Shown: positions 3,111 to 23,402 of the stretch, piece after piece
How positions within the stretch are numbered: position 1 is the first letter of the stretch
How the letters are laid out: each line of letters starts with the position of its first letter
NCBI GenBank assembly: GCA_001768195.1
Contig: MENI01000126.1
Span: forward strand, 1 to 41,722
Direction of reading: 5' to 3'
From: Bacteroidetes bacterium GWA2_40_15
GTDB lineage: Bacteria; Bacteroidota; Bacteroidia; Bacteroidales; VadinHA17
Length of the DNA: 41,722 bases
Translations under genes and position numbers: made by a program
Notes under the pieces: generated by a model
The model's database searches: none
What the model was told of the DNA's origin: nothing
Seen by the model: the letters and a program-made list of their open reading frames with translations, nothing else

Positions 3111-3357
3111 TTATCCTTTCACTACTGGTAAAATCGTATAGCCCTGTTTCCTGAGGTACCAATCGGGCGTGAAGCTTTCAGGTACATTATCACCGGTTTC
3201 TTGCATCCATTCCATTAATATTTCCCGCAATCCAATCAGGTCACTCTTACGATCAGGAGCTGATGCAACATTCAGCAATTGCAACGGTCTGTACATCCTT
3301 GTTACCGTAGCAGCCTAAATAGTTCCAGCTTACATCATCAGCAATGAATTCATCTGT
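3111..3357 (-). pseudogene. Sulfatase remnant: N- and C-terminal ends joined by a large deletion
   Basis: Two pieces of one sulfatase sit back to back on the minus strand. Bases 3357-3298 read IADDVSWNYLGCYGNKD, the N-terminal alkaline-phosphatase-fold motif of type I sulfatases, where the Asp pair binds calcium. About 20 bases later, in a different frame, bases 3296-3111 read LLNVASAPDRKSDL...LMEWMQETGDNVPESFTPDWY, the C-terminal signature common in Bacteroidota sulfatases of the heparan-sulfamidase-like type. The roughly 400 residues in between, including the C/S-x-P-S-R formylglycine site, are gone, and the two frames do not match. The product cannot be active. The 61-codon stretch from ATG 3296 to the stop at 3111 is therefore not a real small gene. 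This shows the ancestor of the locus had a sulfatase. Confidence 0.75.
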
Positions 3358-3484
3358 TTAAAGCCTGATCTCTGGCTGCTGTGAGCTGAAGGATAAATAT
3401 GTCCCATTTTTTTCATATATTACTATTTGCTGTCGATTTAATCCCAATAAAATTAATTGTCCTTTACTTTTCACATGAATCTCT

Positions 3485-3515
3485 TTTGCAGTAAGGTAAT
3501 TAATAAATACTTTTG
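3485..3515 (+). promoter_or_regulatory. Bacteroidota promoter, copy 1 of the DoxX module
   Basis: TTTG at 3485-3488, a 19-nt spacer and TACTTTTG at 3508-3515 match the Bacteroidota -33/-7 consensus. The same arrangement and much of the following leader recur before the intact DoxX gene at 20272-20303, including an AACTTACGTTTACTTATTTT block and an ATTAACAAATATATGAAAC block just before and across the start codon. Conservation between copies supports function. Confidence 0.6.
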
Positions 3516-3601: not shown

Positions 3602-4851
3602 ATGAAACAAAATATTGATTTTACGCCTTTACAAAGATCTGTTTTAGTTGCAATGCGAGTATTGATAGGCTGGCATCTGTTATATGAGGGAATTTCAAAA
3701 CTGCTCATCCCCAACTGGACATCGGCAACTTTTCTGAATGAATCAAAATGGATCCTTTCGGATCTTTCCGGCTGGATTGTATCCAATACAGGGGTATTGC
3801 ATGTTGTGGATTTTCTTAATACCTGGGGACTTATAGCAATTGGACTGGGATTGATAATCGGCTTGTTTACAAGAGCAGCAGCTATTAGCGGGAGCATTAT
3901 GCTCCTGGTATACTATATGAATAATCCGCCACTGATCGGATTCGGCACCAGAGGTCAGCAACTGGCAAATGGACTTGGATTTATGCATCCTGAAGATACT
4001 GCAAGAAAAGAAAAGGACGAAACACTTGCGGAATGGCTCGGACAGGAATATTTAAATGTTGCATTAACCGGAATTTGTGATGTTTTTGATCTTCATGCCG
4101 AAGCAGGTACTGCAACCGCACAAAATGAAAGAAGGCCCGGAGGAAGCGCTGACACGAAGTATCCTGTAAAACGATACCGCTGTTATAAGGATATGCTGAA
4201 CGACAAGGAAATAGATGCCGTGATCATTGCCACACCCGACCATCATCATGCACAGATTACCGTTGATGCTATTAAAGCCGGCAAACATGTTTATTGTGAA
4301 AAAAGTATTGCACGAACTGAAGATGAGTTATTTGAGGTGTATGAAACAGTAAGAAACAGCGATAAAGTATTCCAGTTGGGACATCAGATCACACAAAATG
4401 TTGTTTTTCAGCAGGCAAAAGAGATAATTAAGAAAGATATCCTGGGTAAGATCACACACATCGAAACAACCAGTAACAGAAATACCGCAAGCGGCGCCTG
4501 GATAAGGCATCTCGATGAAAATGGAAACCCAAAACCAGATGATGAAAAGTCGATTGACTGGCTTCAGTGGCTTGGTTCCAGACCCTATTTCCCATTCAGC
4601 ATTGACAGGTATTACAATTGGACAAAATGGTTCGATTACGATACAGGTATGATTGGACAGCTCTTCACTCACGAGTTTGATGCTGTTAATCAACTGCTCA
4701 GGATTGGCATTCCGAAAACTGCAATCTCATCCGGAGGAGTGCAAATATCGAACGTGCATTTGAAGAGGGAGTAGCCTGCCTTATGGCACATAAATCGTAC
4801 ATTGAAAAACGACAGGTTGAATGGGACCCTGCGAACAAAAAAATTGTCTGA
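3602..4851 (+). pseudogene. Chimera of DoxX and Gfo/Idh/MocA oxidoreductase created by two deletions
   Basis: The open frame from ATG 3602 to the stop at 4774 encodes 390 residues: about 112 residues of a DoxX membrane protein (MKQNIDFTPLQRSVLVAMRV...NNPPLIG) run directly into a Gfo/Idh/MocA oxidoreductase (GFGTRGQQL, TPDHHH, HVYCEKS). Comparison with the intact pair at 20378-22461 shows two losses. The first (419 bp in intact-copy coordinates) joins the genes in frame at TGATCGGA (3933-3940), removing the DoxX C-terminus and the oxidoreductase's Tat signal. The second (about 415 bp) follows SSGG near 4738, removes much of the C-terminal domain and shifts the frame; the original ending, ANIERAFEEGVACLMAHKSY, is readable in another frame down to TGA 4849-4851. 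An NAD-binding domain fused to the end of a membrane helix without a complete first beta-strand is unlikely to fold. I call it a pseudogene, although the 390-residue product may be made. Confidence 0.8.
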
Positions 4852-7496: not shown

Positions 7497-8681
7497 CTAT
7501 CTCCAAAAATCAGGTTTAACATTTGTACCATAAGCACGACAATCTGCGCAGAAATCGGCTGAACAATATACTTTTGCCCCGGTTTCATTTATTATACCAA
7601 AGTAACTTTTGGGGATCCATGGCAACTGTTCGTAGTCATAGTATACGCAACCTTTGTAAGCGCTGACAGTCTCCAAATGATGTTCACTTTTATTTATAAA
7701 TAACCTTTTCTCCCTGATTGAAGAAGCGGAGAAATAACCCAGAGCCTTTGCTGTTCCATTGCAGCAGGTAATATTCCCGTATACCTGAGCAGGCATTTTG
7801 TCATAAATATCACCCGCATTTTCATTGGCATCCATTAATTGTTTCCAGAAATTATACAGATCTCTGTTGATTGATGATTGCCTGATCAGAATACTGTACT
7901 TAATATGAAGCTTCTCATCACCCGGACCTATTGTTTGCACAGGGAACCTTTTTAATTCATTTACCTGGTTATTGACTGTAGTAGCTACATTGATTGATTT
8001 TGAAGGCTTTGTAACCCAGCATACTTCCTTTTCAGGACTAACATTTACACTCTCCCGGGTAATATTGCTTGGTGACCCGGGAGCTGAATGTTCAACCATT
8101 ACATAAGCTGTTAACAACCTGACTTCCCATGTCTCTTCAAACTCAAAGAGCCAGTACTTGATCTTTCCCTCAGAATCATGAGTATCAATGAGAATATTCA
8201 TCCAGTTATCCTCAAACGCCTCTCCTCCTTCAAACCTTGTTCGTTTAACCTCCTCAAAATAGACACTATCAACATCAGCCATCTCCTCCATCAACACCGA
8301 TGAAGACTCATATTGTTTTCCGTCAGGAGTAATAATTGACAAAGTATAACTGTTTCCGGATACCCCTTTCAGGTATTTTTCTGTTGTTTCATACCATCCG
8401 AAATTGTTACCGTTAAGCTGATATTCATTACCCTTATCGTCATAAATCCGGACAATCGCATTTAAAACAGGATCCGGAGGTTGCATTGTATTTACAGGAA
8501 TTGAAGTTGTAAGTTTCACTCTGAACGGGCCCTCTTTATCTGTTATTTGTCCTGCAACTACAAGCATTGATTCGGAATCATTTTCATTCAATTGTAGAGA
8601 AATTGGTTCTATGCAGGATCCAAATTGAAGTAATAAACCTATTACAATAAAGAAACAGCGTATTTTATACTTGCAGAACAT
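7497..8681 (-). CDS. DUF4249 lipoprotein (third of three)
   Basis: A 394-residue lipoprotein with a signal ending FGSC. The N-terminal block SMLVVAGQITDKEGPFRVKLTTS and the following Ig-like blocks VRIYDDKGNEYQL and GVSGNSYTLSI are typical of DUF4249. The extreme C-terminus reads FCADCRAYGTNVKPDFW, a Cys-x2-Cys motif shared with the other two DUF4249 proteins here. The start codon overlaps the stop of the TonB receptor gene (TAATG), indicating translational coupling. DUF4249 proteins accompany SusC-like receptors and are thought to be outer-membrane partners, in the position that SusD occupies elsewhere; the ligand is unknown. Confidence 0.85.
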   Translation of the reverse strand: MFCKYKIRCFFIVIGLLLQFGSCIEPISLQLNENDSESMLVVAGQITDKEGPFRVKLTTSIPVNTMQPPDPVLNAIVRIYDDKGNEYQLNGNNFGWYETTEKYLKGVSGNSYTLSIITPDGKQYESSSVLMEEMADVDSVYFEEVKRTRFEGGEAFEDNWMNILIDTHDSEGKIKYWLFEFEETWEVRLLTAYVMVEHSAPGSPSNITRESVNVSPEKEVCWVTKPSKSINVATTVNNQVNELKRFPVQTIGPGDEKLHIKYSILIRQSSINRDLYNFWKQLMDANENAGDIYDKMPAQVYGNITCCNGTAKALGYFSASSIREKRLFINKSEHHLETVSAYKGCVYYDYEQLPWIPKSYFGIINETGAKVYCSADFCADCRAYGTNVKPDFWR

Positions 8682-11428
8682 TAAAACCTGATGTTATAAG
8701 TTATTGTTGGTATTACCGTTCCAAAGATCGAAAGCTTATAGGCTTCAAATTTTCCACCTTCACTTTTGAAATATACCGAATAGGCATTTTTTCGTGCTGT
8801 CAGATTGTAAAGAGAAAAGGTTAGTGAACTATGCGTCAGCTGATTTTTCTTAAGATTACCATGAAGGGTAACTGACAGATCTGTACGGAAATAATCGGAA
8901 ATCCTGTACTGGTTATATTTCGAATACTGAAGAAATACCTGATCGCCCAGCTGATATTTTGCTACAGGGTAGGTTATGGGTCTTCCTGTGGAGTAACTGA
9001 CACTCGTTGAAATAATGAACCTGCGTGAAGCTTTAAGATTGGTCAGTACGTATAAATTATGCGGTTTATCATAGTTGGCCGGAAAGTACTCCCCGTCATT
9101 TATCAGTTCTTCCTTAAATTCCGAAACAGACCTGATCAATGTACGTGAATAGGTATAATCAATCCGGCCATATATCCTGCCACCTCTTTTTTCAACAGAT
9201 AACTCAAGTCCATAAGACTTTCCTTTCCCATTAATAATTTCCGTTTCAATATGATCATTCAGAAGAAGATCGGCACCGGCTTTATATTCTTTTATATTGT
9301 TAATCAGCTTATAATAAACCTCTGCTGAAACTTCGATCGTGTTTCTTTTGAAGTTCCTGAAATAACCTGCAGATAACTGGTGCCCGGTTTGGGGCAACAG
9401 GTAAATATCGCTGAGTTTCCATGTATCGGTTGGCGATATAGCTGTAGTATTGGTAAGCATCTGGATATACTGGGCAGTCTTGTTGTAACTGAGTTTTACA
9501 GAACTGCTCCTGCCGGTTGAATAGTTCATTGAAACTCTCCATTCAGGATTCAGATAAGTTTTCCCGATACTGCTTTTACTTTTATAAAGCGTGTCGATTA
9601 TATTATCTACTGCATATGGCATTGAACCGGCATAAATATATTTCCTGCCATCGTCAAAAGAAATCAATCCTGAAAGTCTTATGCCACCCTCAATCTTCAG
9701 GTTACCTGAAACATTATATTCGGTGCCGGCATAAATACCATACTCCATGGCGTGGTCATTTGAAGTTAATACAGGGGTTATGTTCGAGTTTCCAGGCACT
9801 CTTCTTTCCCCGGGATTAATTGAGTAAAAGTTCAAAGCAGCGCCAAAAATATACTTCTTCCTGCTATCGGTGAAATACTCAAAATCATTTATAAAGGAGA
9901 TATTGGCCAGGTTATGGGTTAAACTAAAGGATTGATTGGTTGAATTTTCATTGGATATCTCATAGTTGAATAAGCTGCAGATCAATGATGTGTTTGATTT
10001 CAGATCAGGATTGTACTTGTGCTTAAGAATTAAAGAACCTATTGTATTGGAATAGTTATAGGTTGTATCGCTGTGCAACTGGAATTTATCTTTGCTGTTG
10101 TAGAAATTTACCAGTAAGTTATTGTTCTCATTGATATATAAGTTAAGCTTTACCTGGCCATCGTAAAAACCTGCCCTGCTGTTATACAGATCAGCAACCT
10201 TTATTTTGCTGAACAACCAGTTCGAGTATGTGCTCCGGAAACTTGTTACAAAAGTAGATTTATCCGGGAACAAGGGGCCATCGAGATTTATCCTGGCTGA
10301 AATCGGGCTGATACCGGCAGAACCCGAGATTTTTTCATGATTGCCTTCAATTGTGTTTATTTCGAATACCGAGGATATCCGGCCGCCATATTTTAAAGGA
10401 ATGCTCCCTTTGTAGAGAGTTGCATTATCAATTATTTCGGAGTTGATGGCTGAAAAATTCCCGAAAAAATGAGATGGATAATAAAGAGGCGCCTGGTCAA
10501 TCAGTATCAGGTTCTGATCGGTATTTCCACCGCGCACGTTGAAGCCTGAAGTACCCTCTCCGACAGTTTGCACCCCCGGCATTGTCAGAATGCTTTTCAT
10601 TATATCCGGCTCTCCCAACAGGGCAGGGACCGATCGGATATTTGAGATATCAACCTTTTCCATACCAATATGCATCTGTCCTATGGCGCCTTCTCCCTGA
10701 CCGAAAATAACAGCTTCTTCCAGTACATTTATCTTTACTTCCATGTCAATATCCAGTCTGCCATCAGAATACATGTTGATGTTACGGGTTACAGGTTCCA
10801 TGCCCATGCAGGTGAAGTGGACAACCTGGTTACCTGCAGGCAATACAATTCTATAAAAACCTGTGGCATCGGAAGATGCCCCTTTCTGAGTTTCAGTTGT
10901 ATATACATTACCACCGATAACAGGGGCTCCCGATTCGTAACTCTTTAGATATCCTGATAAGGTTGCTGTCCCGGAATTATTCTTGCCCGGAGTCCCTATA
11001 TTAATAATCTTATACTGAATCTGCCGGAGTTTTTCCCTCGATACTTTTTTCTCAGGAGATCTTTCTTTTGTTTCTATTTCTTCTTCATCATTGAGCTTAC
11101 TGCCGGGAAATAAACCTGAAAGCAGCAAACCCTGGTAAATCACTACCTGGTTGTTCTCTGAAATATAAAAGTTTAACGGTCTCTTTTCAAATATTGTTTC
11201 CAGGCATCTGCTTAAAGGAGTTTCATTGAAATTTGCTGTTACCAGAATATGTTCAATGGACTTCTCCTCATAGAAAAATTTCACAGGATATTTTTGTTCT
11301 GTTTCGTCAATGAATGAACTCAGAGGCATTTGCTGAAAACTCCCTGTAATAAAAACAGGCAGATTCTGAGCATCAAGGCAGAATGTTGTAATTAAAAGTA
11401 TCAATATTGAACATAATTCTTTTTTCAT
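8681..11428 (-). CDS. TonB-dependent outer-membrane receptor with STN and carboxypeptidase-regulatory domains
   Basis: ATG 11428 gives a 915-residue protein with signal peptide MKKELCSILILLITTFCLDAQ; the TTG at 11452 is rejected. Order of domains: STN at about 25-95 (FITGSFQQMPLSSFIDE...VTANFNETPLSRCLE), CarboxypepD_reg at about 155-235 (LSGYLKSYESGAPVIGGNVY), plug at about 265-350 (DIMKSILTMPGVQTVGEG, FNVRGGNTDQNLILIDQAPLY, LKYGGRISSVFEI), then a 22-strand-type barrel ending in Phe (TITYNIRF), as expected for BAM insertion. It imports a bulky ligand energised by TonB-ExbBD. The STN domain normally contacts a FecR-type anti-sigma factor, but no FecI/FecR pair lies in this window. It overlaps the downstream DUF4249 gene by one base. 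Substrate unknown; a glycan fragment is likely from context. Confidence 0.92.
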   Translation of the reverse strand: MKKELCSILILLITTFCLDAQNLPVFITGSFQQMPLSSFIDETEQKYPVKFFYEEKSIEHILVTANFNETPLSRCLETIFEKRPLNFYISENNQVVIYQGLLLSGLFPGSKLNDEEEIETKERSPEKKVSREKLRQIQYKIINIGTPGKNNSGTATLSGYLKSYESGAPVIGGNVYTTETQKGASSDATGFYRIVLPAGNQVVHFTCMGMEPVTRNINMYSDGRLDIDMEVKINVLEEAVIFGQGEGAIGQMHIGMEKVDISNIRSVPALLGEPDIMKSILTMPGVQTVGEGTSGFNVRGGNTDQNLILIDQAPLYYPSHFFGNFSAINSEIIDNATLYKGSIPLKYGGRISSVFEINTIEGNHEKISGSAGISPISARINLDGPLFPDKSTFVTSFRSTYSNWLFSKIKVADLYNSRAGFYDGQVKLNLYINENNNLLVNFYNSKDKFQLHSDTTYNYSNTIGSLILKHKYNPDLKSNTSLICSLFNYEISNENSTNQSFSLTHNLANISFINDFEYFTDSRKKYIFGAALNFYSINPGERRVPGNSNITPVLTSNDHAMEYGIYAGTEYNVSGNLKIEGGIRLSGLISFDDGRKYIYAGSMPYAVDNIIDTLYKSKSSIGKTYLNPEWRVSMNYSTGRSSSVKLSYNKTAQYIQMLTNTTAISPTDTWKLSDIYLLPQTGHQLSAGYFRNFKRNTIEVSAEVYYKLINNIKEYKAGADLLLNDHIETEIINGKGKSYGLELSVEKRGGRIYGRIDYTYSRTLIRSVSEFKEELINDGEYFPANYDKPHNLYVLTNLKASRRFIISTSVSYSTGRPITYPVAKYQLGDQVFLQYSKYNQYRISDYFRTDLSVTLHGNLKKNQLTHSSLTFSLYNLTARKNAYSVYFKSEGGKFEAYKLSIFGTVIPTITYNIRF

Positions 11429-11470
11429 GTAGATGGTCACGTATCTTAGCAAAAGAATCCGGGAATTATA

Positions 11471-12270: not shown

Positions 12271-13518
12271 TTACCAAAAATCCGGTTTTACACTCTTTCC
12301 CCGCTCCCTGCAATCAGTACAAAACTTTTCTGTACTCCAGACATTTGTCCCGATATACGTGCCGTTGTCAACAATCTTACCATAATAATAGTAGGGGAAC
12401 ATACAGAGTGGAGGAGCTACCCAACCGCAACTGAAATATGCGTTATGGCCTGTTTTAACATGAACATCCCGGTTATCGATAAATATCCTTTTTGTTTTAA
12501 CTGTAGAGACTAAAAAGAAGCCTAACACTTTCTTATCTCCTGATAAAGATTGAATATTCCCGTAAAGCGGGGAAGGCATTTTATCGTACATTCCCCCGTT
12601 TGTTTCATTTAAATTCTCTAACTTTTTAAAGAAATCATATAATTCTTTATTTAGCGAATATTGTTTCACCAGGATACTGTACCTGATACTGAGCCGGTCA
12701 TCTTCAGGACCAATAGATATTAATGGAAAGCTTTTTATTTCACCGGTCAGGTTATCAACCGTTGATTTAACAAGTATTGATTTGGAAGCCTCTGAACCCC
12801 AGCAATGAAACTGTTCGGGAGGAATTGTTACCCACGTCATAATAGGAATACTTTCTCCAGCTCGACCAATACAGGTAGGACTATCAGAAAACCGTTTATC
12901 AACTCTGATATATTCAGGCATCTTAAATTCCCAGGTCTCTTCAAATTCCCATTTTAAGTAATGTATTCCATCAGCCGGCATCCGTGTATTAAGAAGAATA
13001 TCAAGCCACAACTCCTGAGAAACTTCATCTCTTTTAATAGAGATCCTTTGCTTTTCTTCAAAAAACAGACTTTCAATGGGCGGGACTTCCATCATCAATT
13101 CCGGTGTTGATTCGAACCGGTTACCATCTGCATCGGTTATTTGAAGCGTATAGGTATTACCGGGTACACCCTGCAGGCATGTATCGATGGTCTCATACCA
13201 GCCATTTACACCCTGATACAGGTGAAAATCATTCCCTTTGTCATCGGTGATATGAACATCAGCGCCCGATACCGGTTCAGGATTATAAACAACCTTATCG
13301 GAATACTGAATGGGATAAATGGAACCTGATTTTGTAAGCCTCACTTTAAAAGGGCCTGGTTCATCTGTAATAGTACCTTCCACAACAAGCTGGCTTTCAA
13401 GATCATTTTTGGCAAGGTCAGGCTTGAAAGGATCAATACAGGAATTTAACAAAAGCGTCATTGCGAAAAGGCTTTTAAGCAAGAAAAAACAATCTTTATG
13501 ACAGAACGATATCTTCAT
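12271..13518 (-). CDS. DUF4249 lipoprotein (second of three)
   Basis: A 415-residue lipoprotein with signal ending LLNSC. It has the family blocks QLVVEGTITDEPGPFKVRLTKSG, VHITDDKGNDFHLYQG and GVPGNTYTLQITDADGN, the mid-protein FEETWEFK strand, and the C-terminal FCTDCRERGKSVKPDFW. It is slightly longer than its two paralogues because of inserts near residues 190-215 and 340-365. It ends 54 bp before the small secreted gene and follows the first DUF4249 gene after 34 bp. Three diverged DUF4249 copies with one receptor suggest different ligand-binding surfaces on a shared transporter, which is inference. Confidence 0.85.
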   Translation of the reverse strand: MKISFCHKDCFFLLKSLFAMTLLLNSCIDPFKPDLAKNDLESQLVVEGTITDEPGPFKVRLTKSGSIYPIQYSDKVVYNPEPVSGADVHITDDKGNDFHLYQGVNGWYETIDTCLQGVPGNTYTLQITDADGNRFESTPELMMEVPPIESLFFEEKQRISIKRDEVSQELWLDILLNTRMPADGIHYLKWEFEETWEFKMPEYIRVDKRFSDSPTCIGRAGESIPIMTWVTIPPEQFHCWGSEASKSILVKSTVDNLTGEIKSFPLISIGPEDDRLSIRYSILVKQYSLNKELYDFFKKLENLNETNGGMYDKMPSPLYGNIQSLSGDKKVLGFFLVSTVKTKRIFIDNRDVHVKTGHNAYFSCGWVAPPLCMFPYYYYGKIVDNGTYIGTNVWSTEKFCTDCRERGKSVKPDFW

Positions 13519-13552: not shown

Positions 13553-14749
13553 TCACCAAAAATCCGGTTTTACATTCGTACCGTAAGCACGACAATCGTT
13601 ACAAAACATAAACATAGTATAGACTTCATCCTTGTAAGTGATTTTTTCACCACCCTTGTCAATTGTCCCAAAAAAAATCCTCGGAGCCAGATAATTAGGC
13701 TCAGTCAGATATAGGCACGTATAATAAGGACTTACTGTTTTTATGTTGTGGTCATAAAAGTTAATAAATATCCGTTTTGTCCTCAAAGACGATGCTGAAA
13801 AATAACCTAGTGCTTTGCCGGTGCCATCGCATCGAAAGACATTTCCAAATATTTGCGACGGAATCCTGTCATAAATGCTTCCTGATCCTTCACTTACATC
13901 CTGTAATCTTTCCCAAAATGAATAGATGTCTTTAGACAGTGATGTCTGTTTGACCATGATACTATATTTAATCAGTAATTTATCTCCACCTGGTCCAATT
14001 GAGTTAATAACCCTCTTTCTTATTTGGTTTACAGGATTTCTATAAGTTGATTCGATATTGATAGTTTTGGACGGCATGGTTACCCAACAAAACTTTTTCT
14101 CCGGATCAATATTCACATTCTCATTGGTATAATATGCTATTGTTGCATCCCATCCATGCTGGATACGTAAAGAATCGGTAGGGATCATTACTTCCCAAGT
14201 CTCTTCAAAATCCCATTTCCAATATTCTATTTGCCCTGTTTCGTCTTCTGCATCGACAAGGATATTCAACCAATTATCTTCATGGGTCAATCCATTCTCA
14301 AATCGTGTTTTTTTAACTTCTACAAAATAAAGGCTGTCAATATCAGGAACATCCATCATTAACACTGGCATAGATTCATATTGGATACCGTCCTCTGTTA
14401 TAATATTCAAAGTATAGGTATTCCCTGGGATTCCTTCTAAATGTTTGTCTTCAGTTTCATACCATCCATCTTGTTTATCTATTAATTGATAACTATTCCC
14501 TTTATCGTCAATGATATGGATATCAGCGCCTAAATAGGGTTCGGCATAATACAATTGGTCAACCGGTCCAGAATTCGTGAGGTGAACTTTAAATGGGCCC
14601 ACCTCATCGGTTATCAGCCCTTCCACTACCAATAAATTTTGGGTATCAATCTTATCCAGTGTAGGAGTGAATTTCTCTATGCATGAAGGAAGAATAAGGA
14701 TAGTTCCAATAAAAACCGACAGTGCAATATTAATTTTTCTTATTATCAT
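13553..14749 (-). CDS. DUF4249 lipoprotein (first of three)
   Basis: A 398-residue lipoprotein with signal ending LPSC. Family blocks: LLVVEGLITDEVGPFKVHLTNSG, IHIIDDKGNSYQL, GIPGNTYTLNIITEDG, FEETWEVM and the C-terminal FCNDCRAYGTNVKPDFW. It is closer to the copy at 7497-8681 than to its neighbour at 12271-13518: both have the DIDSLYF/DVDSVYFEEVKRTRFE-type block, an INIESTYRNPVNQI/INVATTVNNQVNEL segment and AYGTNVKPDFW. That pattern suggests the copies did not arise as a simple tandem pair. It starts 35 bp after the upstream TIM-barrel gene and is probably in the same operon. Confidence 0.85.
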   Translation of the reverse strand: MIIRKINIALSVFIGTILILPSCIEKFTPTLDKIDTQNLLVVEGLITDEVGPFKVHLTNSGPVDQLYYAEPYLGADIHIIDDKGNSYQLIDKQDGWYETEDKHLEGIPGNTYTLNIITEDGIQYESMPVLMMDVPDIDSLYFVEVKKTRFENGLTHEDNWLNILVDAEDETGQIEYWKWDFEETWEVMIPTDSLRIQHGWDATIAYYTNENVNIDPEKKFCWVTMPSKTINIESTYRNPVNQIRKRVINSIGPGGDKLLIKYSIMVKQTSLSKDIYSFWERLQDVSEGSGSIYDRIPSQIFGNVFRCDGTGKALGYFSASSLRTKRIFINFYDHNIKTVSPYYTCLYLTEPNYLAPRIFFGTIDKGGEKITYKDEVYTMFMFCNDCRAYGTNVKPDFW

Positions 14750-16785: not shown

Positions 16786-17407
16786 TCATTTCACCACCAC
16801 CATCGCCGGTTCACTTTCGTTCCACCGGTTATCAACCGCAACAACCTCATAATACAGACCCTTCGGGCTAAATGGAACAGCATCGGTAACCGAGGTTTTC
16901 AGCACCGATCAGATCAGGGTATTTCCCGGCAATGAAAAACGACATGATCCCGCCCATGCTATGGCCGATCACCGCACGGCTGGATCGCTCTGCCAGCGTC
17001 CTGTAAGTACTGTCAATATAACTAACAAGCTCAAGAAAATAATCCTTGAACTGCACCTGGTAGTTTATGTTGGAATGATTTCCGATGTTATAAGGACGAA
17101 GATCTGTGTCTTTCGAACGACCGTTCCATGCGACAAGAATTACTCCATTATCATTTACGAGTTGCTCAACTCCTGGTATCTTCAACTCATGACTTCCGGT
17201 ATTCCCGTGAAAATAATAGATCACCGGATAGCGTTTTTGCGAGGTACCATAGTCGACCGGAAGAAATATCCTGTAAGGTTTTTCGCGGTCGAGAACCTTG
17301 CTGAAATGGGAGAAGTCCTCCTGTGCCATTAAACAGTCCGATACGATCATGATCAAAAACAAACCGGTTAATGCCGTAAGGAGGTTCATTCTATTTGAAT
17401 ACTTCAT
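16786..17407 (-). pseudogene. Decayed esterase: alpha/beta-hydrolase N-terminal half joined out of frame to an FN3 tail
   Basis: From ATG 17407 (signal peptide ending DCLMAQ) the frame encodes an esterase-D/PHB-depolymerase-like hydrolase: YRIFLPVDYG, VIYYFHGNTGSHELK, VAWNGR and the nucleophile elbow GHSMGG. After KYPDLIGA the frame runs into nonsense and stops at 16868 (179 residues). In another frame, from about 16909 to 16786, the sequence reads VLKTSVTDAVPFSPKGLYYE followed by VVAVDNRWNESEPAMVVVK, a typical FN3 C-terminal domain. The catalytic Asp and His part of the hydrolase is missing, so activity is unlikely. This fits an internal deletion within an esterase-FN3 protein, or fusion of two neighbouring genes. 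A promoter-proximal palindrome lies upstream at 17573-17589. Confidence 0.65.
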
Positions 17408-17572
17408 GGAGCAGTACTTTTTAAAGCCAGGGAACAACATTAATTTAAAAATTACAAAACCTTATTAAAATTGAAGTAATGTGCCTAAAAATAAGTTAAA
17501 AGTTTTAATTATCTTTCAATAACTTGATATTTAACAAAATATTTATTCCCTTTACTTTTTATATCATCATCG

Positions 17573-20271: not shown

Positions 20272-20303
20272 TTTGCAAAATTTGTAATTAATAAATACCT
20301 TTG
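20272..20303 (+). promoter_or_regulatory. Bacteroidota promoter, copy 2 of the DoxX module
   Basis: TTTG at 20272-20275, a 20-nt spacer and TACCTTTG at 20296-20303 match the Bacteroidota consensus. The leader from about 20336 to the start codon at 20378 is nearly the same as in copy 1 (3485-3601), including AACTTACGTTTACTTATTTT. A similar leader in both modules suggests common regulation. Confidence 0.6.
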
Positions 20304-20377: not shown

Positions 20378-20881
20378 ATGAAACAAAATATCAATCTTAT
20401 ACCCTTACAAAAATTTGTTTTGATAGCCCTTCGAGTGTTGATCGGCTGGCATTTGTTGTACGAGGGTATATCAAAGTTACTCATTTCCGACTGGTCATCA
20501 GCAGGATTCTTAAGTGAATCAAAATGGATCCTGAAAGGATTTTCCGGTTGGATTGTCTCCAATGCAGGTGTATTGAATGTCGTGGACTTTATGAATATCT
20601 GGGGACTTATGGCAATTGGAGTGGGGCTGATCATTGGTCTGTTTACCCGGACGGTAGCTATTAGTGGGACAATTATGCTCCTGTTATATTATTTGAATAA
20701 TCCACCTCTGATCGGACTGGAATATACACTCCCCTCGGAAGGGAGCTATCTGATCGTCAGTAAAACCCTGATTGAGGCAGCAGCATTATTTGCTCTGGCT
20801 GTATTCCCGGCAGGATCTTTTGCAGGATTGGATAGTATCAGACGGAGGTTTAGATTTCGTAATCATAAAAAAGAGGCATAA
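20378..20881 (+). CDS. DoxX family membrane protein
   Basis: Start ATG 20378 (167 residues) is chosen because the paralogous module begins with the same MKQNI and the upstream ATG at 20327 lies in the conserved leader. Four hydrophobic helices are visible: FVLIALRVLIGWHLLYEGISKL, VLNVVDFMNIWGLMAIGVGLIIGLF, AISGTIMLLLYYL and IVSKTLIEAAALFALAVF. The first helix carries the RxxxGxxxxxxGxxK-like pattern of DoxX proteins. DoxX/DoxD proteins are linked to quinone-dependent redox reactions (thiosulfate:quinone oxidoreductase, and the mycobacterial DoxX-SodA-SseA complex). Five bp separate it from the Tat-exported oxidoreductase gene, so the two are cotranscribed and probably work together at the inner membrane. 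Confidence 0.85.
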   Translation: MKQNINLIPLQKFVLIALRVLIGWHLLYEGISKLLISDWSSAGFLSESKWILKGFSGWIVSNAGVLNVVDFMNIWGLMAIGVGLIIGLFTRTVAISGTIMLLLYYLNNPPLIGLEYTLPSEGSYLIVSKTLIEAAALFALAVFPAGSFAGLDSIRRRFRFRNHKKEA

Positions 20882-20886
20882 TTATT

Positions 20887-22461
20887 ATGGAAAAAGAAAA
20901 AGACCCCATACAGAAACCCACAACTTCGCTTAAGCGCAGGACATTATTGAAAGCGTTAGCCGGTATACCCGTTCTTGGCGTTTTTAGCTTTGAGGTGATT
21001 AAGAAATGGAGTTTTGAGCAAAAAAAGAAAAACAGGGTAATTGAGTTACTGGGATTAGAAAATCTGAAGGCGCCTATTGCCGTAAAAAGTTTATCGTCCA
21101 AACTGGGCGATCCACTCCGGATTGGGATGATCGGATTCGGCAGCAGGGGCCGGCAGTTATCAAATGGGCTTGGCTTTATGCATCCGGCTGAAGTTGAGAA
21201 AAGAAAAAAAGATAATTCTCTGGACGGATGGCTTGAGCAGGAAAACTTAAACGTGGCCATGGTTGGCATTTGTGATGTGTTTGATCTGCACGCGCAGAAC
21301 GGGCTGGCAACTGCACAAAATGATATCCGGCCGGGTGGCGGCACAGGATTAAAACTTCCTGTGAAACGATACCGTACATACCAGGATATGCTGGCCGATA
21401 GCGATATTGATGCCGTGATGATTGCCACCCCGGACCATCATCATGCACCCATTACGGTTGAAGCAGTGAAGGCCGGCAAACATGTATATTGTGAGAAGAG
21501 TGTAGCCCTTTCGGAGGATGAATTAAATACTGTATATAATGCAGTTAAAAACAGCAATGCTGTATTTCAACTTGGGCACCAGGGTCCCCAGAATGTCATT
21601 TTCCGGCAAGCTAAGGAAATTATTAAGAAAGATATTTTGGGGAAGATCACACTGATAGAGACAACCACCAACCGAAATACGGCCGACGGGGCCTGGATCA
21701 GACACCTCGATGCAAATGGGAACCCGAAACCCGGTGATGAGAAATCAATTGACTGGCTGCAATGGCTGGGATCCCGGCCATACGTGCCTTTTAGTATTGA
21801 CAGGTATTACAGCTGGACCAAATGGTTCGATTACGATCTGGGCATGATCAGTCAGCTTTTCTCCCATGATTTTGATGCAGTGAATCAGTTGCTCAGGATC
21901 GGAATTCCAAAATTCGCGGTTTCATCGGGAGGCATCTACTATTGGAAAGACAACCGTGAAATCCCCGATGTTCTCCACTGTGTTTTTGAATATCCTGACC
22001 GCGATATGACATTGATATACAGCGCCGATCTTGCCTGCAGCAGGGACAGGGGTCAGGTATTCATGGGACATGATGCCTCCATGGAACTGGGTGAGTCATT
22101 AAGCATCACGGTCGATTATGATTCAACACGCTATAAGAAAAAAATTGAAGATGGGATTATCGATACTTCAGGTCCAATGATCTCAATACAACCAGGATCG
22201 GGCAAGGTGGATGCGGTAACTTCTGCCACTGAAAAGTACTATGTCTCAAGAGGCCTGACCACGACCAGTATCAACGGGCGTCAGATTGATCTTACTCATC
22301 TGCATATCAAGGAGTGGATCGATTGTATTCGCAACGGCGGAATTCCGAGTGCCAATATTGAGCGCGCTTTTGAAGAAGGGGTTGCATGCCTTATGGCACA
22401 CAAATCTTACCTCGAACATCGGCGTGTTGAATGGGATCCTGTGAACAGAAAAATAGTCTGA
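20887..22461 (+). CDS. Tat-exported Gfo/Idh/MocA oxidoreductase
   Basis: A 524-residue protein. Residues 14-38 are a twin-arginine signal (SLKRRTLLKALAGIPVLGVF, R17-R18). The Rossmann fingerprint GFGSRG is at 83-88, TPDHHHAP near 180 and the EK signature at 203-204 (HVYCEKS). The C-terminal alpha/beta domain holds WLQWLGSRPYVPF, WTKWFDYDLGMISQLFSHDFD and a long sheet region. Family members oxidise or reduce sugar hydroxyls with tightly held NAD(P); exported members such as glucose-fructose oxidoreductase carry the cofactor across the membrane by Tat. Recently described Bacteroides enzymes of this family oxidise glycosides at C3 to allow non-hydrolytic cleavage. Here the cotranscribed DoxX and PmoA-like genes suggest a periplasmic sugar-oxidation unit. 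The copy at 3602-4851 is its decayed paralogue. Confidence 0.88.
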   Translation: MEKEKDPIQKPTTSLKRRTLLKALAGIPVLGVFSFEVIKKWSFEQKKKNRVIELLGLENLKAPIAVKSLSSKLGDPLRIGMIGFGSRGRQLSNGLGFMHPAEVEKRKKDNSLDGWLEQENLNVAMVGICDVFDLHAQNGLATAQNDIRPGGGTGLKLPVKRYRTYQDMLADSDIDAVMIATPDHHHAPITVEAVKAGKHVYCEKSVALSEDELNTVYNAVKNSNAVFQLGHQGPQNVIFRQAKEIIKKDILGKITLIETTTNRNTADGAWIRHLDANGNPKPGDEKSIDWLQWLGSRPYVPFSIDRYYSWTKWFDYDLGMISQLFSHDFDAVNQLLRIGIPKFAVSSGGIYYWKDNREIPDVLHCVFEYPDRDMTLIYSADLACSRDRGQVFMGHDASMELGESLSITVDYDSTRYKKKIEDGIIDTSGPMISIQPGSGKVDAVTSATEKYYVSRGLTTTSINGRQIDLTHLHIKEWIDCIRNGGIPSANIERAFEEGVACLMAHKSYLEHRRVEWDPVNRKIV

Positions 22462-22463
22462 TC

Positions 22464-23402
22464 ATGAAATCGAACAGGCTGGTTTTTCTTTCTTTTTTAG
22501 TATTAATAAGTATTGTTGGCTTTAATGCCAGGAGAAAATCTCCATTTACTTTCAGGGAAAATACGCAGGGTGTTGAACTGCTTGAAAACGGCCGGCCCGT
22601 GTTTTTTTACCAGCGGGAGCCGAGATCGTTGACCAACCAGTATGTATATAACAACTACCTGCATCCTTTATACTCCCTTACAGGTGATACCCTAACCGAG
22701 GAGTTCCCCGAAGATCATCCGCACCACAGGGGAATTTTCTGGGCATGGCACCAGCTTTATATTGGCAATCAAAGTGTTGGAGATGGATGGGTGATGGAAA
22801 GCATACATCAGGAGGTTGCTGACGTTAAGTCCGGGATACAGAAGAATTCGGCCCGGCTTGATCTTAATGTAAGGTGGAAATCTAAGTTGTGGCAGAATGG
22901 CAAGCCTTTTGTTCATGAACATACCACCATTGAGGTTCATCTCCTGCAATCGGACATCCGCATAATTGATTTTGAAATTGCCCTGGTTGCACTTGTTCCG
23001 GGAGTCAGTATAGGTGGATCGGATGATGAGAAGGGGTATGGCGGTTTCTGTACCCGTATCAGGCTTCCTGATGATATGGAATTTACATCGGCCGGTGGAA
23101 AGGTAATTCCTCAAACATTGCAAATCGTGGCAGGCTCGTGGATGGATTTCTCAGCATCTTTTGGAAAGAGCGACAAGAAAAGCGGACTAATAATCCTGTG
23201 TCATCCCAGTACGCCCAATTACCCGGCCCCCTGGATCCTCCGACAGGTTACAAGCACACAGAATATTGTTTTTCCCGGCAGGCAACGAGTAAATTTATCA
23301 ATGGACAAACCTGTTGTTTTGAGATACCGCCTGGTACTACATAAAGGCAGCGCCCTGGATGTGAATATTGCTCAGCTAAAAGAACAATATGATAAGATAT
23401 GA
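22464..23402 (+). CDS. PmoA-like protein (DUF6807), secreted
   Basis: ATG 22464 gives a 312-residue protein with an N-terminal hydrophobic signal (NRLVFLSFLVLISIVGF); an in-frame ATG 33 bp earlier lies in the end of the preceding gene and is rejected. The family is recognised by EDHPHHRGIFWAWHQ (near residue 85-100), NQYVYNNYLHPLYSL, the conserved GGYGGFCTRIRLP-type block (here KGYGGFCTRIRLP), and SGLIILCHPSTPNYPAPWILR. DUF6807/PmoA proteins are beta-sandwich proteins common next to Gfo/Idh/MocA genes in Bacteroidota and Planctomycetota; despite the name they are not methane monooxygenase subunits. The His cluster suggests metal or sugar binding. It follows the oxidoreductase after 2 bp, and its stop overlaps the next start (ATGA). 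Confidence 0.8.
   Translation: MKSNRLVFLSFLVLISIVGFNARRKSPFTFRENTQGVELLENGRPVFFYQREPRSLTNQYVYNNYLHPLYSLTGDTLTEEFPEDHPHHRGIFWAWHQLYIGNQSVGDGWVMESIHQEVADVKSGIQKNSARLDLNVRWKSKLWQNGKPFVHEHTTIEVHLLQSDIRIIDFEIALVALVPGVSIGGSDDEKGYGGFCTRIRLPDDMEFTSAGGKVIPQTLQIVAGSWMDFSASFGKSDKKSGLIILCHPSTPNYPAPWILRQVTSTQNIVFPGRQRVNLSMDKPVVLRYRLVLHKGSALDVNIAQLKEQYDKI

What the first reader, a model, noticed from the sequence alone, without database searches (positions are those of the whole stretch)
3602..4851. In-frame DoxX/dehydrogenase chimera formed at an 8-bp microhomology
The intact pair at 20378-22461 allows exact reconstruction. TGATCGGA occurs once in the DoxX gene (20709-20716) and once in the oxidoreductase gene (21128-21135); collapse between them removes 419 bp and joins the two different reading frames in phase, giving the junction at 3933-3940. 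A second loss of about 415 bp (intact-copy positions about 21933-22347) shifts the frame. The near-equal loss sizes are curious. The product would be a three-helix membrane stub carrying a cytoplasmic or periplasmic Rossmann piece. Seen directly; whether it is expressed is unknown.
Basis: seen in the sequence. Interest (0 to 1): 0.7.

Follow-up and report, generated by a model that had tools for sequence, protein, structure and literature searches.

The report
Dead fused gene from two deletions
One of several copies of a membrane-protein and sugar-dehydrogenase gene pair in an environmental bacterium has lost two internal pieces, which accidentally welded the two genes together and then broke the reading frame, so it looks like a young dead gene and not a new protein.

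Summary
Against the paralogous pair at 20378-22461, the copy at 3602-4851 lacks 419 bp and 415 bp. The first loss joins DoxX residue 113 to Gfo/Idh residue 84 in frame at TGATCGGA; the second shifts the frame and the ORF ends at 4774.

Best reading: a recently broken duplicate (pseudogene).
- No other genome searched has the chimera: 61 relatives and 393 order-level genomes, overlapping sets. In 31 two-gene loci read at DNA level the genes are separate.
- Surviving codons carry purifying selection up to recently: omega 0.068 against 0.075 in the background; a terminal neutral phase is at most about 0.10 of 2.9 substitutions per codon.
- The out-of-frame tail is still coding-like.
- A sulfatase remnant gutted by another internal deletion lies beside it.

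The in-phase join is no coincidence: TGATCGGA encodes x-Ile-Gly in both genes, so collapse there keeps phase. The near-equal loss sizes carry no weight.

Side finding: DoxX is naturally fused, through an invariant twin-arginine segment, to an aldo-keto-reductase-like barrel, four times in this genome and in 28 of 393 order-level genomes.

The parts
3485..3515 (+). promoter-like site TTTG-N19-TACTTTTG kept in the broken copy
   Evidence: pattern scan; consensus TTTG / TAnnTTTG from a passage of PMC7366714
3602..4774 (+). chimeric ORF, 390 aa
3602..3940 (+). DoxX-derived part (residues 1-113)
   Evidence: alignment to 20378-20716
3933..3940 (+). junction 1, TGATCGGA shared with 20709-20716 and 21128-21135; 419 bp lost
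3933..4736 (+). Gfo/Idh-derived part (intact residues 81 to about 349)
   Evidence: alignment to 21128-21931
4736..4737 (+). junction 2, 415 bp lost, 1 bp of microhomology, frame shift
4738..4851 (+). tail in the parental frame, out of frame with the chimera, 37 codons and the parental stop
3138..3447 (-). sulfatase remnant: C-terminal piece 3138-3287, N-terminal piece within 3259-3447, about 345 residues between them missing
   Evidence: against the C110 sulfatase (Pfam PF00884)
20272..20303 (+). promoter-like site TTTG-N20-TACCTTTG of the intact copy
20378..20881 (+). intact DoxX gene (paralog)
20887..22461 (+). intact Gfo/Idh/MocA oxidoreductase gene with N-terminal twin-arginine segment (paralog)

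Best explanation
This is a young pseudogene. An ancestral segment (promoter, DoxX gene, twin-arginine Gfo/Idh oxidoreductase gene) was duplicated and both copies stayed under selection for a long time. Recently one copy suffered two internal deletions. The first most likely arose by slippage or end-joining between short direct repeats (TGATCGGA) that encode the same x-Ile-Gly tripeptide in both genes, which is why two different frames met in phase. The second arose with almost no homology, removed most of the C-terminal domain and shifted the frame. The product, if made, lacks the last DoxX helix, the twin-arginine segment, the start of the first Rossmann strand and Gfo/Idh residues 349-487, and is probably inactive. 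The intact pair 17 kb away and a third pair on another contig can cover its function. Shown: the two losses, their junctions, absence from the other genomes searched, and past purifying selection on the surviving codons. Inferred: mechanism and order of the deletions, their recency, and lack of function.
For: Alignment with exactly two large gaps. Other pairs in the same genome at 20378-22461 and on C94. Across the junction in one frame only in this genome among 61 relatives and 393 order-level genomes (overlapping sets, at most 4 candidates scored per genome, E up to 1e-60). Of 34 loci read at DNA level, 31 have both genes and 0 are fused. In 36 selected loci (the window's intact copy included) the Gfo match covers 492-524 residues, a twin-arginine segment is present in 36 and DoxX lies beside it in 33. 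Omega on the chimera branch 0.068 against 0.075, 2dlnL 0.14; a terminal neutral phase has its best value at 0 and a 95% upper limit near 0.10, of a branch of about 2.9 substitutions per codon on the neutral scale. The chimera's protein branch (0.170) is not longer than that of the intact copy (0.211). The tail, out of frame since deletion 2, differs from the intact copy at 2, 3 and 17 first, second and third codon positions. Another internally deleted gene adjoins it.
Against: A low omega would also be seen if the chimera were functional; the test alone cannot separate recent from useful. The in-frame part prefers no neutral phase while the 37-codon tail prefers about 0.10-0.15 (2dlnL about 2.9, not significant), which is the direction a functional chimera would predict. 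The promoter-like site, the glycine loop and the EKS motif are kept. Absence of stops excludes only older decay: at 0.1 substitutions per codon, 29% of simulated stretches still have none. In favour of slight decay, the chimera breaks 5 of 115 otherwise invariant columns, the most of 26 sequences (0-4 in the others). No reads, transcripts or peptides were available.
Confidence: 0.85

Rival explanations
1. Assembly artefact: the real genome has a full second pair here and the assembler skipped two stretches.
For: The genome is in 127 contigs, reads were not available, and only one genome carries the chimera.
Against: The overlaps of 8 bp and 1 bp are far too short for a usual word-based misjoin (general knowledge); the copies differ at 21-27% of bases, so reads should not cross-map; no other contig holds the missing parts at high identity apart from the two other pairs.
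Confidence: 0.06
2. A functional new membrane-anchored protein: three DoxX helices hold a truncated NAD-binding domain on the periplasmic side, acting for example as a decoy or regulator of the intact pair.
For: Open across junction 1; promoter-like site kept; omega not raised. An odd number of helices would put the domain on the side to which a twin-arginine enzyme is exported (inference). Natural fusions of DoxX to an oxidoreductase-like domain exist.
Against: Not found elsewhere; frame-shifted end; Gfo/Idh residues 349-487 lost; no twin-arginine segment, which is present in 36 of 36 relatives examined and 15 of 15 natural fusions aligned; the out-of-frame tail is also still coding-like.
Confidence: 0.05
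3. Chimera made by recombination or gene conversion between paralogs instead of simple deletions within one copy.
For: Three paralogous pairs exist in this genome.
Against: All three blocks are collinear with the intact pair and similarly diverged from it (78.5%, 72.9%, 78.7%); no block stands out as recently copied from the intact pair, or from C94 (68-74% in the pieces). No formal recombination test was run.
Confidence: 0.04

Closest known systems
Bacterial pseudogenes (Kuo and Ochman 2010, PMC2916853; abstract and list of sections seen)
   Same: A redundant gene copy disabled by deletions, apparently young, with no relative sharing the lesion.
   Different: Here the first deletion also removes a stop and a start and welds two neighbouring genes in frame before a second deletion breaks the frame.
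Gfo/Idh/MocA oxidoreductases (Pfam PF01408; best NCBIfam match glycoside 3-dehydrogenase BT_2158_fam, 102.7 and 99.3 bits for chimera and intact copy against a cut-off of 750)
   Same: Part of the Rossmann domain, the glycine loop and the EKS motif are kept in the chimera.
   Different: The chimera lacks the N-terminal twin-arginine segment, the start of strand 1 and intact residues 349-487.
Natural DoxX - twin-arginine segment - aldo-keto-reductase-like barrel proteins
   Same: DoxX in front of an oxidoreductase-like domain in one chain.
   Different: They keep the last DoxX helices and the twin-arginine segment, carry another catalytic fold, and recur in many genomes.

Membership tests
pseudogene (disabled duplicate) | intact relative in the same genome | tested here: met
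   pairs at 20378-22461 and on C94
pseudogene (disabled duplicate) | lesions that truncate or shift the frame | tested here: met
   415-bp loss shifts the frame; stop at 4772-4774; Gfo/Idh residues 349-487 gone
pseudogene (disabled duplicate) | lesion not conserved in relatives | tested here: met
   within the limits of those searches
pseudogene (disabled duplicate) | relaxed selection since the lesion | tested here: inconclusive
   best neutral phase 0, upper limit about 0.10 substitutions per codon: too young to tell, or constrained
pseudogene (disabled duplicate) | no functional product | not testable with these tools
   no expression or activity data
functional Gfo/Idh/MocA oxidoreductase | complete Rossmann domain with glycine loop | tested here: inconclusive
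   loop kept; the start of the predicted first strand (77-82 in the intact model) is replaced by NPPL of DoxX
functional Gfo/Idh/MocA oxidoreductase | complete C-terminal alpha/beta domain | tested here: not met
   residues 349-487 deleted; in the chimera GFO_IDH_MocA_C2 matches only 6-101 of 254, below its cut-off; in the C94 relative a C-terminal domain is matched at 302-511
natural DoxX-RR-oxidoreductase fusion | whole DoxX followed by a twin-arginine segment | tested here: not met
   last DoxX helix and RR segment lost in the chimera; RR invariant in 15 of 15 fusions aligned

The most novel reading that the evidence does not exclude
DoxX is the standing membrane partner of twin-arginine, periplasm-facing oxidoreductases in these bacteria: with Gfo/Idh enzymes as a two-gene unit (DoxX beside the enzyme in 33 of 36 loci examined, RR segment in 36 of 36), and with an aldo-keto-reductase-like barrel as one natural chain that carries a segment of the same pattern and spacing, RR-x-x-[IL]-[KR]-x(5)-P-x-x-G. 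The window chimera would then be an accidental, failed joining of two proteins that already work together.
Probability: 0.45. Interest if true: 0.5.

Novelty: new member of a known kind. Interest (0 to 1): 0.22.

Why it matters
As a chimera it is a tidy snapshot of how a short repeat that encodes the same tripeptide in two neighbouring genes can weld them in phase: microhomology of equal codon phase forces an in-frame fusion. This case is probably dead on arrival. The more useful lead lies beside it: the regular pairing, and in another family the natural fusion, of DoxX with twin-arginine oxidoreductases suggests a testable function for DoxX in periplasmic redox chemistry.

Tried and rejected
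1. Natural full-length DoxX-Gfo fusions: one search listed open frames of 716 and 703 aa in G019 and G015 over both genes; reading the DNA showed stops between them, so they are two genes in one frame. Rejected.

2. Conserved chimera: none. One 33%-identity match starts at query residue 97 (G005); its DNA was not read further. In one search every other listed match starts at residue 102 or later.

3. Meaning of the near-equal loss sizes: 0.4-1.2% for random size pairs depending on the assumed range, seen after the fact; the sulfatase loss next door has another size. Dropped.

4. Alignments of the chimera with separate DoxX and Gfo rows for folding (A1; A3): MAFFT laid DoxX rows over the Gfo part, so they were not used and the chimera itself was not folded. 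The intact enzyme was folded: mean pLDDT 56.9, good only in the Rossmann part (about 75-230); its fold search gave Gfo/Idh-type and other dehydrogenase structures at low TM-score, 0.24-0.35 on the query. Statements on the C-terminal domain rest on the deletion bounds and not on that model.

5. Literature: searches for DoxX with Gfo, with oxidoreductase and operon, with twin-arginine, and for BT2158 with 3-keto gave 0 papers. DoxX with fusion protein and domain gave 11 papers, 10 listed, of which I saw passages of one (PMC12452194: DoxX in bufferin gene clusters, not this context). Searches on microhomology, short repeats and bacterial pseudogenes gave listings only, apart from PMC2916853 (abstract and section list). 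'Not found' means not found in these searches of an open-licence library.

6. Limits of the selection test: the branches are near saturation (about 2.9 substitutions per codon on the neutral scale); a simple codon model written here was run on 13 of the 26 aligned sequences; the more distant loci (L025-L029, L040, L041, L068) and the near-duplicates L055 and L061 were left out before the tree. Some loci are copies of one place or close strains (L019 and L058 one contig, of which one was counted; L061 and L062 look alike), so the loci counted are not all independent. The 36 loci were chosen because they hold a close Gfo relative; distant Gfo family members (L011-L017, L030-L036, L038, L045-L047) were not examined for DoxX.

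Full report
WHAT IS THERE. The window lies on a 42.7-kb contig of a 4.77-Mb genome in 127 contigs. I take it as Bacteroidales. The ORF 3602-4774 reads as DoxX for 113 residues and then as a Gfo/Idh/MocA oxidoreductase. Against the intact pair at 20378-22461 the alignment has two large gaps, 419 bp at 3932/3933 and 415 bp at 4736/4737, with 78.5%, 72.9% and 78.7% identity in the three blocks. Homology starts upstream of the ATG, at about 3478, and includes a promoter-like TTTG-N19-TACTTTTG in the broken copy and TTTG-N20-TACCTTTG in the intact one (consensus from a passage of PMC7366714, which also says that the -33 motif was not seen in Flavobacterium johnsoniae). So a promoter plus two-gene unit seems to have been duplicated. 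A third pair lies on contig C94, with 66% (DoxX) and 68% (Gfo) amino-acid identity to the intact pair. In a tree the broken and intact copies fall together, apart from the rest with support 96; the protein branch of the broken copy (0.170) is shorter than that of the intact one (0.211).

WHY THE FRAMES MEET. TGATCGGA occurs once in each parent gene and once at the junction. In DoxX it is cTG ATC GGA (L111-I112-G113), in the oxidoreductase aTG ATC GGA (M81-I82-G83): both copies lie in the same codon phase of their own gene. Collapse between them therefore joins the genes in phase although their frames differ. The intact pair has 15 direct repeats of 8 bp or more between the genes, 5 of them phase-equal. 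Random junctions would show an overlap of 8 bp or more with probability 1.9e-4, which favours a repeat-guided deletion; but the parent's own sequence is unknown, since the comparison copy is a paralog, and relatives vary at these bases (L020 has the same 15 DoxX bases up to the repeat's end as the chimera). Junction 2 shares 1 bp.

WHAT IS LOST. Deletion 1 removes the end of DoxX, with its last hydropathy peak, and the first 80 residues of the oxidoreductase. These include a twin-arginine segment found in 36 of 36 loci examined and the start of the first Rossmann strand (residues 77-82 in the model). Deletion 2 removes residues 349-487 and shifts the frame. The glycine loop (LIGFGTRG) and the EKS motif remain; their roles in the family are recalled and were not tested.

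GENE OR REMNANT. In 61 relatives and 393 order-level genomes (overlapping sets, at most 4 candidates scored per genome) only the window's own genome has a chimera-type match from DoxX into the oxidoreductase; every other listed match starts at query residue 102 or later. Of 34 loci read at DNA level 31 have both genes and none is fused. Surviving codons show no relaxation: omega 0.068 on the chimera branch against 0.075 elsewhere (2dlnL 0.14), while the intact copy's branch has 0.131 (2dlnL 3.9). If a final neutral phase is added to the chimera branch, its best value is 0 and its 95% limit about 0.10 substitutions per codon, of about 2.9. The same test on the intact copy prefers 0.10 (2dlnL about 3.3), so the test is not sharp at this scale. 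The 37-codon tail, out of frame since deletion 2, has 17 of its 22 differences from the intact copy at third positions; its own best neutral phase is 0.10-0.15, not significant, with a limit about 0.33. The simplest account is that both deletions are recent. A functional chimera would give the same low omega in the in-frame part, and the tail's weak preference leans that way; I cannot exclude it. Pointing to slight decay, the chimera departs from 5 of 115 otherwise invariant columns, more than any of the other 25 sequences (0-4).

SURROUNDINGS. On the minus strand at 3138-3447 lie the C- and N-terminal ends of a sulfatase (54% over 50 residues, E 1.9e-16; 30% over 66 residues with a stop inside, E 6e-6) whose middle, about 345 residues, is missing; the intact homologue on C110 matches Pfam Sulfatase. 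The esterase ORF at 16868-17440 matches only profile positions 1-139 of 251 and looks truncated. So at least one other gene right beside the chimera was gutted by an internal deletion.

SIDE FINDING. Four other DoxX genes of this genome encode proteins of 510-524 residues in which DoxX is followed by a twin-arginine segment (for example SRREMIKNLAVLPLFGA) and a C-terminal domain. A search with one of them (at most 3 candidates scored per genome) finds matches in 32 of 393 order-level genomes; in 28 of these at least one match includes the DoxX part, in 4 (G023, G108, G258, G426) it does not. Both arginines and a proline and a glycine of the segment are invariant in 15 of 15 aligned members. 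Beyond DoxX none of the four proteins of this genome has a Pfam match; the one tried has no NCBIfam match and none by sequence in the PDB. A model (mean pLDDT 73.2) resembles aldo-keto reductases best (4exb/4exa, TM-score on target 0.70-0.75), with IMP dehydrogenases and other barrels further down. The segment has the pattern and spacing of that of the DoxX-paired Gfo/Idh enzymes (KRRTLLKALAGIPVLG). That suggests that DoxX is a standing membrane partner of twin-arginine oxidoreductases; this is an inference from gene context and fusion, and Tat export itself was not tested.

VERDICT. A real (if the assembly is right), recent, accidental in-frame gene weld inside a pseudogene: correct observation, ordinary biology, low interest in itself.

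Noticed in passing
L005:1480-3036 (G000 C32), L004:1489-3060 (C62), L006:1489-3018 (C6), L007:391-1935 minus (C5): Natural single-chain proteins: DoxX, then a twin-arginine segment, then an aldo-keto-reductase-like barrel without a Pfam match; 28 of 393 order-level genomes have a match that includes the DoxX part.
   Followed up: partly
window 3138-3447, minus strand: Sulfatase remnant with its middle missing, N and C ends in different frames, directly upstream of the chimera.
   Followed up: yes
window 16868-17440, minus strand: Esterase ORF of 190 aa that matches only the first 139 of 251 profile positions, probably truncated.
   Followed up: no
window 7497-8681, 12271-13518, 13553-14749, minus strand: Three DUF4249 genes near a TonB-dependent receptor gene (8681-11452) that also matches FecR_C at its N-terminus.
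   Followed up: no
window 22431-23402: A DUF6807 gene follows the intact DoxX-Gfo pair; DUF6807 homologues also follow the pair in L048, L050, L051, L053, L063 and L069, but a 303-aa ORF without a Pfam match and without a homologue in the loci fetched follows the broken copy.
   Followed up: partly
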